The notes beneath the pieces were generated by a model. It searched no databases. It was not told the origin of the DNA and worked only from the letters and a program-made list of their open reading frames with translations. A stretch of 64,000 nucleotides of DNA from Polynucleobacter sp. MWH-UH19D (lineage in GTDB: Bacteria > Pseudomonadota > Gammaproteobacteria > Burkholderiales > Burkholderiaceae). Below, piece by piece: positions 61,585-64,000 of the stretch (its first letter is position 1; each line of letters begins with the position of its first letter). The DNA is taken from the NCBI RefSeq assembly GCF_040409795.1, contig NZ_CP099571.1, forward strand, positions 496,001-560,000. The letters run 5' to 3'. Made by a program: the position numbers and the translations under genes.

Positions 61585-61614
61585 AGCTCGATAAGAGGCT
61601 GCAGCCTTCAGTTA

Positions 61615-61638
61615 AAACCTTCACCAGAAATGGTGGAG
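61615..61638 (+). terminator. rho-independent terminator after the DUF3300 gene
   Basis: AAACCTTCACC (61615-61625) pairs with GGTGGAGGTTT (61632-61642 region) with one G-T pair, followed by T residues. Confidence 0.75.
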
Positions 61639-61650
61639 GTTTTTTATTGC

Positions 61651-62079
61651 TTAGTGAGTTTGAGTCCCAATAGATCTGCTGATTGCATGAAAGATAAACG
61701 TCCCAAAAAAGATTAAGCCTAGTGCCCAGTGAGTGAGCTCACTAAGTTCATGAACTTCTTCTGGACCATAGTAGAGAAGCATCGCTGTGATCGTCAGAAT
61801 GAGCAAAATGGCTAATTGCAAAATTCCGCTGATCAGATTTTTCTTGGATTTAAGACCAGCTTTGATATGAAAGGGCAGTATCGTCCCAAAAGCGATCAAA
61901 GCAATTGCTGCGGAAACACCATGGATGATCAGAACTGTGTGATCACCAAGTAAAGTGCGGGAGATATGAAACTCATGCCCTAGTAGGAAAGCGATACCTG
62001 ATAGAGAGCAAATGCCCAGTGCAGAGATCGTAAACCATCGTTGCCAGTTTGGCATCTTACCTAAGCCGTGTTTTTTCAT
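61651..62079 (-). CDS. histidine-rich four-helix membrane protein (putative heme b carrier)
   Basis: A 142-residue membrane protein with helices at about 16-34, 48-70, 82-104 and 117-134. Histidines sit at both ends of helix 2 (His53, His71) and helix 4 (His117, His131, thirteen residues between), with more at 35, 38, 47 and 110. Spaced helix-end histidines are the pattern of b-type di-heme membrane proteins such as cytochrome b561 and DUF4405 proteins. The start at 62079 gives an ATGA overlap with the apbE gene. Heme binding is an inference. Last gene of the flavin cluster. Confidence 0.75.
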   Translation of the reverse strand: MKKHGLGKMPNWQRWFTISALGICSLSGIAFLLGHEFHISRTLLGDHTVLIIHGVSAAIALIAFGTILPFHIKAGLKSKKNLISGILQLAILLILTITAMLLYYGPEEVHELSELTHWALGLIFFGTFIFHAISRSIGTQTH

Positions 62080-62879
62080 TGGGCGAGACAAATAGCGTGA
62101 GCTGCATACTTTTTAAAAACAGGGTAAGTGCTATCTTTGCTAATAGCCAAGACTTTTGTCAGTGCATCTGCATAAATGCACTCGGGCGCAATAACCGAAT
62201 ACGATTCGGTAAATTCAATTTGATTCATTGTTTTGGGATTAACAATGTGTCCTTGCTTAGGCTTGGACTGATCACAATAGCCAAGAGAGCTAGTCGCAAT
62301 CGCACCATTTTCAAGAGAGCCTAATGACATTAGCTCGCTTGAATTTCCGGGGTTTCGAATTTGAATGCTCTGGGAAACATCTCCAAAAACCCGCAAATCA
62401 CCACCTGCGTTTACAGAACCGGAAGTAGCGCCACATTGTTTAAGGGCCTCAACCGCTTTATCGACAGCAAATCCTTTTGCAATACCTCCTAGATCCAGGG
62501 TAAGCGGAACTTTAGAGTAGACGGTATTCGGTTTAGTGAGCATTAGATTCATGATGCTGCTCAGGGATGTATGAAGATCATTGGAGTGTCTTGGCAACAA
62601 ACCTGAATCCACTAATTTCCCGCCAACAGCACAATCAAATAATCCATTTGTGATTTCGCAGAGCTCTTTAGCGATCTCAAGCACTTGAAAAGTCCATGCA
62701 TGAATTTGGATGAGTTCTATGTGGGCGTGTGCATTCACTCGAGATAGCTCGCTATTAGGGTTGTGAAATCCCATCAAGTCTTGAACAAGTTCAATGGTCG
62801 CAAATGCATGGTCGATAGCGATCTCCTGATTTGCGGAGATCTCAACATAAGTTCCCAGAAGTGGTTTGCACCGAATCAT
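62076..62879 (-). CDS. apbE: FAD:protein FMN transferase (ApbE family)
   Basis: A 267-residue flavin transferase that attaches FMN from FAD to a Thr or Ser of a target protein. The ATG at 62879 overlaps the stop of the FMN-binding gene by ATGA. Signatures are GGIAKGFAVD (131-140) and NAGGD (157-161); family residues for FAD and Mg binding are in place. Unlike most ApbE proteins no Sec signal or lipobox is visible at either possible start, so either it works in the cytosol or export is cryptic. It sits directly after its presumed substrate gene. Confidence 0.92.
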   Translation of the reverse strand: MIRCKPLLGTYVEISANQEIAIDHAFATIELVQDLMGFHNPNSELSRVNAHAHIELIQIHAWTFQVLEIAKELCEITNGLFDCAVGGKLVDSGLLPRHSNDLHTSLSSIMNLMLTKPNTVYSKVPLTLDLGGIAKGFAVDKAVEALKQCGATSGSVNAGGDLRVFGDVSQSIQIRNPGNSSELMSLGSLENGAIATSSLGYCDQSKPKQGHIVNPKTMNQIEFTESYSVIAPECIYADALTKVLAISKDSTYPVFKKYAAHAICLAQ

Positions 62880-63421
62880 TTGGATTTGGGTTTTAAGGCT
62901 AAGTCGTACATCACCATGAGTCTCTTCACTCCATCTGTGAGATGTTTGCACGAGAGGGTTGCACCAGATATATTCTGGATATCCTTTTTAAGCTTTAGCG
63001 GATCCTCTGCAGTTTTGCCAACAAACTGCTTACGCCAACTCTCTTCAGCTACTTCATAACCGTAAGACTCCACGTATTCCATGATTTCAATGCCTTGCAC
63101 TGTTCCGTTTGGTGCAATACCAATGGCATAGGTAATCATTTCATGCTTGCCAACCACTTCATCCACAATAAAAAAACTACCATCGGCCGCTTTCCAGGTC
63201 TTATCCCCTTTAAATGGATGGCTAACGCTAGATGCCGACTGCATTTTGTCTTGAATATCCTCGGTCAATACCACGGGATATTTAGTAAATTGCTTATTCG
63301 CAAAGATGAGCTTCTGTGCTTGTTCTGCTGAAACATAAATTTTTGCTTGGGCATAGATCGGTGCACCCATTAAGGTAATGCCAGCAATTGCTATCAGTGG
63401 ATTAGGGTTCCATTTCATCAT
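62876..63421 (-). CDS. FMN-binding domain protein (covalent flavoprotein, RnfG/NqrC-like domain)
   Basis: A 181-residue exported protein with a signal peptide (to about residue 25, APIYAQA). The FMN_bind domain occupies the C-terminal half, with the flavinylation motif SGATLS; the accepting residue is probably Thr155. The upstream segment with ITYAIGIAPNGTVQGIEIMEY is typical. The start at 63421 is the first of two ATGs; an earlier TTG at 63427 is possible. The following apbE gene is coupled by ATGA, which strongly supports covalent FMN. A likely periplasmic or membrane-anchored electron carrier. Confidence 0.92.
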   Translation of the reverse strand: MMKWNPNPLIAIAGITLMGAPIYAQAKIYVSAEQAQKLIFANKQFTKYPVVLTEDIQDKMQSASSVSHPFKGDKTWKAADGSFFIVDEVVGKHEMITYAIGIAPNGTVQGIEIMEYVESYGYEVAEESWRKQFVGKTAEDPLKLKKDIQNISGATLSCKHLTDGVKRLMVMYDLALKPKSK

Positions 63422-63436
63422 AATCAATCTGTTTAT

Positions 63437-63616
63437 TTAGTTTGCCAACAACTCAGTTGCTTCATGGCATAGAGTTTGAATTTCGGTATTACTATTCTTT
63501 GAGTTGGCCAGCGTCTCAAACATCATCAATGCTCTTTCTCTTGCTTTTGGGCATTTTGTGTTTTGGAATTGAATCAAGTGAGTTACTGCACCAACCAGTA
63601 AATTTTGTATTTCCAT
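63437..63616 (-). CDS. small conserved-looking protein (59 aa) in the flavin cluster
   Basis: A 59-residue frame from the ATG at 63616 to TAA at 63439. The product is predicted helical, with one cysteine and nearby Lys/Pro in NTKCPKARERAL and another Cys-His pair in TLCHEA. No signal or membrane span. It fills the gap between the outer-membrane protein gene and the FMN-binding gene on the same strand, 15 and 24 bases from each, so it reads as a real operon member. No family is recognised. Confidence 0.6.
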   Translation of the reverse strand: MEIQNLLVGAVTHLIQFQNTKCPKARERALMMFETLANSKNSNTEIQTLCHEATELLAN

Positions 63617-63640
63617 CTTTATTACCCCAGTAGTGAATTC

Positions 63641-64000
63641 TTAGAATTTGGCCAATGGAAAGCCAACTTTCACGATGAATTCATTTAATCCATGTGAGTC
63701 CCACACGCGGGCGTTTGAACATTCTGCCGTTCCTGTCCCCATGCATGTTCCGCCTTTGAGTTGATAGCGCCAAGCAGCGGTGAACCACCAATCTTTTGAT
63801 GCATAGTGCATATTTGGCCCTACAAAAGTCGCTTTCTGAGTTTGGTTTTGCAAGTTGTAACTTGAATAGTCATTATGAAAACGCGCTTCTACACCTCCAA
63901 ACCACTTTGGTGCGAATCGATAACTAGCACCCACCAAGAAATCCAGCATCGATTCAGGAACATTGCCATTACCAACAAACTTCAATTGTTCATTCGCCAC
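63641..64000 (-). CDS. outer-membrane beta-barrel protein, C-terminal part (partial)
   Basis: The last 119 codons of a gene whose start lies beyond the window end. Alternating hydrophobic and polar residues with aromatic girdles (SMLDFLVGASYRFAPKWFGG, WWFTAAWRYQL) and the final ...KVGFPLAKF ending in Phe indicate a beta-barrel of the outer membrane. Two Cys lie in a loop (GGTCMGTGTAEC). It is the first gene seen of the flavin cluster on the minus strand. Confidence 0.7.
   Translation of the reverse strand: MANEQLKFVGNGNVPESMLDFLVGASYRFAPKWFGGVEARFHNDYSSYNLQNQTQKATFVGPNMHYASKDWWFTAAWRYQLKGGTCMGTGTAECSNARVWDSHGLNEFIVKVGFPLAKF

What the first reader, a model, noticed from the sequence alone, without database searches (positions are those of the whole stretch)
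61651..64000. Candidate extracytoplasmic flavin/heme electron-transfer module
Five minus-strand genes lie in a row with overlaps or gaps of 24 bases or less: outer-membrane barrel, a 59-residue protein, an FMN-binding protein with an intact SGAT site, ApbE, and a four-helix protein with histidines at both ends of two helices. Together they could carry electrons from the inner-membrane quinone pool through heme and covalent FMN towards the outer membrane or a substrate in the periplasm. The pairing of a short b-type-like membrane protein with this flavoprotein is not one I can match to Rnf, Nqr, Nos or FLEET systems.
Basis: partly seen in the sequence, partly recalled or inferred. Interest (0 to 1): 0.7.

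Follow-up and report, generated by a model that had tools for sequence, protein, structure and literature searches.

The report
Iron-regulated flavin and heme reductase operon
Five neighbouring genes in a freshwater Polynucleobacter bacterium look like a small electron wire (membrane heme protein, covalently bound flavin, outer-membrane barrel) that probably turns ferric iron into the ferrous form the cell can import, which would explain how such bacteria obtain iron.

Summary
The operon is real: barrel, 59-aa protein, FMN_bind, ApbE, four-helix protein, with two ATGA overlaps and gaps of 15 and 24 bases. Linkage holds: 61 of 64 genus loci carry barrel-FMN-ApbE-membrane gene in order, the other 3 being cut by contig ends; 47 of 51 further Burkholderiales places have FMN_bind within 6 kb. 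Heme is likely but unmeasured: four histidines are kept in 129, 129, 129 and 128 of 129 homologues, the model resembles diheme b cytochromes, and divergent members match cytochrome b561 and DUF4405 models. Two Fur-type boxes lie just beyond the window, before the operon; all 59 testable genus loci have at least one, and the motif also precedes feoAB. FeoB is in 25 of 29 genus genomes with the module and 0 of 7 without. Best reading: a Fur-controlled assimilatory ferric reductase, quinol to diheme b to covalent FMN to Fe(III), feeding FeoB. It is a new variant of ApbE-flavinylated electron transfer; the window cytochrome matches no published membrane partner by Pfam, and its ApbE is leaderless. 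Biochemistry is untested.

The parts
61651..62079 (-). Four-helix membrane protein (142 aa), predicted diheme b-type cytochrome; H53+H117 (periplasmic side) and H71+H131 (cytoplasmic side) as likely heme ligand pairs
   Evidence: pairing and sidedness inferred from helix order and the positive-inside rule
62076..62879 (-). ApbE-family FAD:protein FMN transferase (267 aa), no signal peptide; ATGA overlaps with both neighbours
   Evidence: PF02424 5.9e-42 (on the longer ORF); N-termini; residue survey
62876..63421 (-). FMN_bind protein (181 aa) with Sec-type leader (..GAPIYAQA) and SGAT flavinylation site
   Evidence: PF04205 3e-11
63437..63616 (-). 59-aa leaderless protein with two conserved cysteines; in 25 of 64 genus loci; function unknown, optional part
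63641..64000 (-). C-terminal 119 aa of the DUF6662 outer-membrane barrel (whole gene 307 aa, reaching window-equivalent 64564). Two Fur-type boxes lie 32 and 62 bases before its ATG at window-equivalent 64596-64610 and 64626-64640, outside the window
   Evidence: PF20367 4.4e-13; barrel nature inferred from family, leader and a beta-rich but low-confidence model
61614..61643 (.). Hairpin after the membrane gene, terminator-like on the + strand (for the convergent DUF3300 gene); on the - strand it is followed by only four T
   Evidence: -14 kcal/mol, z -3.1

Best explanation
A Fur-repressed assimilatory ferric reductase. When iron is short, Fur lets go and the operon is made. The four-helix protein takes electrons from the quinol pool (inferred) and passes them through two stacked b hemes to the periplasmic side (inferred from two conserved histidine pairs). 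They go on to the FMN that ApbE attaches to the FMN_bind protein (inferred from SGAT and the adjacent apbE), which reduces Fe(III) or small ferric chelates that entered through the barrel (inferred). The Fe(II) is taken up by FeoAB, which carries the same Fur-type box. Shown by sequence: gene order, conservation, histidines, motif, leader, Fur-type boxes, FeoB co-occurrence. Inferred: cofactors, direction of flow, substrate.
For: Linkage: 61 of 64 genus loci have all four core genes in order, 3 are cut by contig ends. At 51 non-genus Burkholderiales places, within 6 kb: FMN_bind 47, FMN_bind plus ApbE 40, a DUF6662 or Porin_O_P type barrel (home-made profiles) 32; at 9 wider-class places FMN_bind 8, ApbE 7, barrel 6. 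Co-occurrence: of 37 genus genomes 29 have both membrane gene and FMN_bind, 7 have neither, 1 (G028) ends at a contig edge inside FMN_bind. Cytochrome: histidines H53, H71, H117, H131 in 129, 129, 129, 128 of 129; model pLDDT 86.6; 10 of the 13 VIA rows with Z 9.6 or more are b-type cytochromes or designed diheme proteins; 8 of 18 aligned members match DUF4405 and 5 of 18 cytochrome b561 at E 0.01 or better, L041 and L227 over the b561 cut-off. Partner exchange: a PepSY_TM protein takes its place after porin and FMN_bind in L154; a DUF1924 cytochrome c stands in for FMN_bind at 2 of 51 places, both in one genus. Iron: boxes with 12 or more of 14 matches before the barrel in 59 of 59 testable genus loci (of 64), 4.07 per kb against 0.023 per kb elsewhere; outside the genus in 21 of 59 loci examined (61 given) against 3.1% of random 450-base windows; same motif 65 bases before feoA; one Fur-family protein; FeoB in 25 of 29 genus genomes with and 0 of 7 without the module (Fisher 4e-5, not corrected for relatedness). 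PMC6629928 (passages) says only ferrous uptake is known in P. asymbioticus.
Against: No heme, flavin, reductase activity or iron phenotype has been measured. The window's membrane protein itself matches no Pfam model at E 0.01, Foldseek gave no match at E 0.001, and Z near 10 can be common for helical bundles (note). 4 of 29 genus genomes with the module lack FeoB, and two of the 25 with both (G011, G017) have broken module copies. 38 of 59 non-genus loci show no Fur-type box at this threshold. FTR1 is near the block in only 1 of 51 places, the one that supplied the profile. A CCP_MauG diheme protein precedes the block in 7 of 51 places, which hints at another acceptor there. ApbE has no leader while its substrate does. 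Two genus genomes (G003, G025) carry the membrane gene away from barrel-FMN-ApbE. PMC6629928 also states that P. asymbioticus cannot use the Fe3+ of the medium; whether that strain has this module was not checked.
Confidence: 0.64

Rival explanations
1. A general periplasmic electron supply: the same quinol to diheme b to FMN wire, but delivering electrons to a protein (a CCP_MauG-type peroxidase, a cytochrome c or another repair enzyme), with iron control because it contains heme.
For: CCP_MauG precedes porin-FMN-ApbE-membrane gene in 7 of 51 order-level places, from five families; DUF1924 cytochrome c stands in for FMN_bind in 2 of 51; a HiPIP and a cytochrome b561 gene also carry Fur-type sites in the own genome.
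Against: I recognised no such partner among the window genes or the recurrent neighbours in 64 genus loci (ORFs of 90 aa or more, clusters in 8 or more loci); FeoB co-occurrence is not predicted.
Confidence: 0.17
2. Extracellular or outer-membrane electron transfer: the barrel forms a conduit and electrons leave the cell to humics or minerals.
For: A barrel of DUF6662 or Porin_O_P type lies within 6 kb in 32 of 51 order-level places and precedes the block in 61 of 64 genus loci.
Against: I recognised no multiheme cytochrome in the window block; a 307-aa barrel without a CXXCH motif could hardly carry electrons itself; the barrel type changes between DUF6662 and Porin_O_P, as expected for pores; Fur-type boxes.
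Confidence: 0.07
3. Superoxide oxidation or redox defence: the membrane protein works like E. coli superoxide oxidase (cytochrome b561, 5oc0), sending electrons from periplasmic radicals into the quinone pool, with FMN as entry point.
For: 5oc0 is among the nearest folds (Z 9.7, rmsd 3.5, 131 aligned); PF01292 matches in 5 of 18 members.
Against: Superoxide oxidase is not known to need a flavoprotein or barrel (recall); FeoB and Fur-box links.
Confidence: 0.06

Closest known systems
DUF4405 / FezC flavinylation- and ferrosome-associated cytochromes (PMC10979944)
   Same: Short membrane b-type cytochrome beside apbE and a flavoprotein; conserved histidine pairs; proposed iron link; 8 of 18 aligned members match PF14358 at E 0.01 or better
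   Different: Four helices here against six in DUF4405; best of the 18 scanned is below the PF14358 cut-off; FMN_bind plus outer-membrane barrel instead of flavodoxin-type partners
PepSY-like assimilatory iron reductase clusters (PMC8238504; FoxB)
   Same: Membrane protein proposed to carry heme plus ApbE-flavinylated periplasmic protein, Fur control reported for some members; in L154 a PepSY_TM protein follows porin and an FMN_bind protein
   Different: Here FMN_bind rather than DUF2271, a membrane protein without PepSY match, DUF6662 or Porin_O_P barrel, leaderless ApbE
Prokaryotic cytochrome b561 (PF01292), incl. superoxide oxidase CybB
   Same: Two histidine pairs in a helix bundle; model similarity; some divergent members match, two seen over the cut-off
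   Different: Window protein has no match; linked to a flavoprotein operon
RnfG/NqrC
   Same: FMN_bind domain with SGAT (RnfG model 1.9e-7, below cut-off)
   Different: Own genome has one FMN_bind protein, this one; no Rnf or Nqr genes recognised in the block
P19/FTR1 iron uptake clusters with FMN_bind (PMC8238504)
   Same: FMN_bind with iron uptake; FTR1 near one relative (L041)
   Different: No P19 seen in the block; FTR1 in 1 of 51 places only; the transporter here would be FeoB, unlinked

Membership tests
ApbE-flavinylated extracytosolic electron-transfer systems | FMN_bind (or other) substrate with [S/T]GA[S/T] and an export signal | tested here: met
   Window protein: SGAT and Sec-type leader. 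Survey: 129 places given, 124 with a hit; SGAT 56, TGAT 4, GGAT 58, AGAT 4, TDAT 1, unreadable 1; the target Thr is kept in all 123 readable
ApbE-flavinylated extracytosolic electron-transfer systems | ApbE adjacent | tested here: met
   64 of 64 genus loci; 40 of 51 order-level places
ApbE-flavinylated extracytosolic electron-transfer systems | ApbE itself exported (signal or lipobox), as in the characterised secreted cases (PMC12052999, passages) | tested here: not met
   No strongly hydrophobic N-terminal stretch in 53 of 53 loci measured (12-residue mean at most 1.32; FMN leaders median 2.18); 25 more of the 78 examined gave no value (motif spelled otherwise or too few residues) but are printed without a leader; 2 of 80 lacked FMN_bind; one place (L043/L089) is counted twice
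ApbE-flavinylated extracytosolic electron-transfer systems | Covalent FMN on the substrate | not testable with these tools
   needs in-gel fluorescence or mass spectrometry
DUF4405 cytochromes | Match to PF14358 over its cut-off | tested here: not met
   Window protein no match; best of 18 members 25.0 bits against 26.7
DUF4405 cytochromes | Six transmembrane helices with four central histidines | tested here: not met
   Four helices in the model, though four conserved histidines
Prokaryotic cytochrome b561 (PF01292) | Match over the curated cut-off | tested here: inconclusive
   Window protein none; relatives L041 (42.3 bits) and L227 (35.9) over 30.1
Prokaryotic cytochrome b561 (PF01292) | Heme b bound by two histidine pairs | not testable with these tools
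   Ligand pattern present; heme needs a spectrum
PepSY-like iron reductase systems | PepSY_TM membrane protein (PF03929/PF16357) | tested here: not met
   No such match for the window membrane protein
NapH-like, MsrQ-like and DsbD systems (PMC8238504 definitions) | Their key Pfam membrane component (PF12801, PF01794, PF02683) in the cluster | tested here: not met
   No such match among the eight window proteins scanned; PF12801 only near relative L041
Rnf / Nqr complexes | RnfG or NqrC model over cut-off with the other subunits | tested here: not met
   RnfG 31.3 bits against 102, NqrC 19 against 144; no other subunit among the proteins scanned
Fur regulon | Fur box before the operon and a Fur protein in the genome | tested here: met
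   binding itself not testable here

The most novel reading that the evidence does not exclude
A distinct, self-contained kind of assimilatory ferric reductase: a four-helix diheme b cytochrome paired with a flavoprotein and a pore, in which flavin is attached by a leaderless ApbE clade with an invariant Lys in ADALTK and often no histidine at the presumed catalytic position, so that FMN is loaded on the precursor inside the cell before export. It would be the missing ferric step of Feo-only freshwater bacteria.
Probability: 0.25. Interest if true: 0.8.

Novelty: new variant of a known kind. Interest (0 to 1): 0.62.

Why it matters
Polynucleobacter is common in fresh water (recall), and a paper on P. 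asymbioticus says only ferrous uptake is known there although iron in the environment is mostly ferric (PMC6629928, passages). A Fur-controlled reductase that travels with FeoB would close that gap for the species that have it, and gives a direct knockout test. It would also add a four-helix cytochrome type to the flavinylation-associated electron carriers, and it raises the question of how a leaderless ApbE flavinylates an exported protein.

Tried and rejected
Barrel structure: the model was poor (pLDDT 45.6), so it was not searched. Pfam and NCBIfam scans of the window membrane protein gave nothing over cut-off; weak hits such as DUF4149 were discounted. A strict 16-base Fur pattern found nothing in the genome; the 15-base form with one mismatch found 24 sites against 3 for the reversed control. 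Of those 24 I judge six to lie before iron- or heme-related or DUF6662 genes (HiPIP, canonical barrel, this operon twice, feoA, a cytochrome b561); the other 18 lie inside ORFs, at ORF edges or before genes without an iron link that I recognise. Linkage to an ArsR-type regulator, an MBL-fold protein and a TauE-like gene downstream of the usual genus locus (names by eye) was set aside: they are on the other strand or further away and not at the window locus. FTR1 and RND-efflux neighbours are not recurrent. VIA shows no PepSY (FoxB) row among the 50 listed, which shows nothing either way. Two weak class-level hits in ORFs of 905 and 1025 aa were not followed. A first neighbour table lost the membrane gene in 7 of 45 loci through my ORF filter and was redone. 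A first Fur count mixed five divergent genus loci with the rest (25 of 64); one search separates them (genus 4 of 5, non-genus 21 of 59). A first motif count missed some SGAT sites and was redone. Papers: PMC10979944 parts 1-3 of 5 and passages; PMC8238504, PMC12052999 and PMC6629928 passages; PMC3308952 searched for iron terms, no hit. DUF6662 is in no paper of the library; the listings (some listed only in part) showed no title that describes this combination.
Full report
Observation. The five genes exist as described, on the minus strand from 61651 into the window's end. Two ATGA overlaps and gaps of 15 and 24 bases make one transcription unit likely. The barrel continues 564 bases past the window; its product matches DUF6662 (PF20367, 4.4e-13). 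A strong hairpin follows the last gene. The genome is 1.95 Mb. I place it in Polynucleobacter (Burkholderiales) because same-genus genome G008 has contigs of the lengths and match places of Polynucleobacter sp. MG-27-Goln-C1.

Linkage. A scan of the named genome collection gave 64 loci, titled Polynucleobacter or, for metagenome bins, Burkholderiaceae or beta proteobacterium; I call them genus loci. 61 have barrel, FMN_bind, apbE and membrane gene recognisable in that order, though not all unbroken (L108 barrel and L151 FMN_bind in two ORFs, L136 shortened); 3 are cut by contig ends; the 59-aa gene is in 25. Among 37 genus genomes the membrane gene and FMN_bind are both present in 29, both absent in 7, and one (G028) is cut off. 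Where FMN_bind is present (30 genomes) it is the only one, except in G008, which has two copies of the block; apbE goes with it except in the cut genome G028, and G006 has an apbE without FMN_bind. Two genomes, G003 and G025, keep the membrane gene apart from barrel-FMN-apbE. A profile of 18 members found the membrane gene in 55 of 349 genomes of the order and 11 of 369 of the class, two of these weakly. At the 51 non-genus order-level places, within 6 kb: FMN_bind 47, FMN_bind and apbE 40, a barrel of DUF6662 or Porin_O_P type 32, a CCP_MauG diheme protein 7, a DUF1924 cytochrome c with no FMN_bind 2. At 9 class-level places: FMN_bind 8, apbE 7, barrel 6. Neighbours were called with home-made profiles from a few seeds, some of them among these loci. 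The search used the membrane protein alone, so the neighbours were not selected for.

Membrane protein. Model: four helices, pLDDT 86.6, pTM 0.76. H53, H71 and H117 are in 129 of 129 sequences and H131 in 128 of 129, the exception being the early-ending copy in L136. Helix order and the positive loop after H71 put H53 and H117 on the periplasmic side and H71 and H131 on the cytoplasmic side (inference), as in transmembrane diheme cytochromes. Of the 13 VIA rows with Z 9.6-11, ten are hydrogenase cytochrome b, superoxide oxidase, cytochrome b6, formate dehydrogenase gamma or designed diheme proteins; the other three are two designed bundles and a channel chain. Foldseek had formate dehydrogenase gamma first at E 0.04 and nothing at E 0.001. 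Such Z values can be common for bundles, so this is support, not proof. By sequence, 8 of 18 members match DUF4405 and 5 of 18 cytochrome b561 at E 0.01 or better; L041 and L227 pass the b561 cut-off; the window protein matches neither. In L154 a PepSY_TM protein sits where this protein would be, after a porin and a distant FMN_bind protein; PepSY-like proteins are established neighbours of flavinylated proteins (PMC8238504, PMC10979944). This exchange, and the DUF1924 one, are what an electron-donating cytochrome would show.

Flavin parts. SGAT is intact in the window protein. Of 129 places given, 124 had an FMN_bind hit: SGAT 56, TGAT 4, GGAT 58, AGAT 4, TDAT 1, unreadable 1; the Thr is kept in all 123 readable. 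In the genus 56 of 68 have G at the first motif position, a departure from the published D-x-x-[S/T]-G-A-[S/T] (PMC12052999, passages). FMN_bind has a Sec-type leader (median hydropathy 2.18; three low values are truncated or mis-picked sequences), while ApbE has none in 53 of 53 loci measured, with 25 further loci not measured. In 113 aligned ApbEs (117 rows, 4 gapped) the Lys of ADALTK is invariant, and the position I take for the catalytic His (by its SHIIDP-like motif, recalled) is His in 40 and otherwise mostly Pro, Tyr, Ala or Phe. The window ApbE keeps the His. That canonical ApbE has Thr where this clade has Lys is recalled, not tested. A leaderless ApbE with an exported substrate is unexplained; the review describes cytosolic ApbE only for intracellular targets in the passages I saw.

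Iron. Two 13-of-14 Fur-type boxes lie 32 and 62 bases before the barrel's ATG. In 59 testable genus loci of 64, 51 have two boxes, 5 three and 3 one within 500 bases upstream of the mature barrel start: 4.07 per kb against 0.023 per kb in the rest of the same loci. Outside the genus, 21 of 59 loci examined (61 given, 2 without room) have a box within 450 bases of the first block gene against 3.1% of random windows, in DUF6662-first, porin-first, CCP-first and FMN-first layouts. Genome-wide the motif also precedes feoA by 65 bases, which supports its being the Fur motif. One Fur-family protein was found. FeoB is in 25 of 29 genus genomes with the module and 0 of 7 without; outside the genus, in 5 of 5 with the module and 6 of 19 without. 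Two of the 25 (G011, G017) have broken module copies. These counts are not corrected for common descent, and a few genomes are incomplete.

History. The own genome keeps a second DUF6662 gene at the usual genus position (402869-403783) with flanks intact, but fmn, apbE and the membrane gene are not found there. The window copy belongs to a divergent version (73-78% identity of the membrane protein) also found in MG-27-Goln-C1, AP-Reno-20A-A9 and G026; the first two carry both versions. The module has probably been lost and regained or replaced (inference), and is degenerate in G017 (stop codons), G011 (frame break) and P. necessarius PPGSP2, L136.

Mechanism and judgement. That this is a membrane-to-periplasm electron wire ending in a covalent flavin I hold at about 0.85; that its main duty is reduction of ferric iron for FeoB at 0.64. 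Steps shown: genes, order, conserved ligands and motif, Fur-type boxes, co-occurrence. Steps inferred: cofactors, quinol as donor, direction, the barrel as entry pore. The kind (ApbE-flavinylated carrier with a membrane cytochrome, some assigned to iron) is known; I saw no description of this four-helix type, the DUF6662 barrel or the leaderless ApbE of an exported protein in the listings and passages seen.

Noticed in passing
own genome 402869-403783 (L063:4864-5778): A second DUF6662 barrel (75% identical) with its own Fur-type box stands alone where other Polynucleobacter carry the whole block; the flavin and cytochrome genes are not found there.
   Followed up: yes
ApbE clade of this operon, window 62076-62879 and 117 aligned rows: Presumed catalytic His replaced in 73 of 113 members, invariant Lys in ADALTK, no leader peptide; mode of flavinylation unclear.
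   Followed up: partly
window 63437-63616: 59-aa leaderless protein with two cysteines kept in all full-length copies aligned, present in 25 of 64 genus loci; no family match over cut-off.
   Followed up: partly
L282:2470-2484 and L278:1574-1588 (own genome): Fur-type sites before a HiPIP gene and before a cytochrome b561 gene.
   Followed up: partly
L213, L238, L243, L251, L253, L039, L153: A CCP_MauG diheme peroxidase-like gene precedes porin-FMN-ApbE-cytochrome in five families, a possible alternative acceptor.
   Followed up: no
L035:5361-6395 and L223: A DUF1924 diheme cytochrome c directly before the same four-helix protein, without FMN_bind or ApbE; both loci are of one genus, and one of these genomes has a full block elsewhere (L153).
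   Followed up: partly
L136 (P. necessarius PPGSP2): Shortened barrel, FMN_bind and membrane ORFs, the last without the fourth histidine: apparently decaying copy.
   Followed up: no
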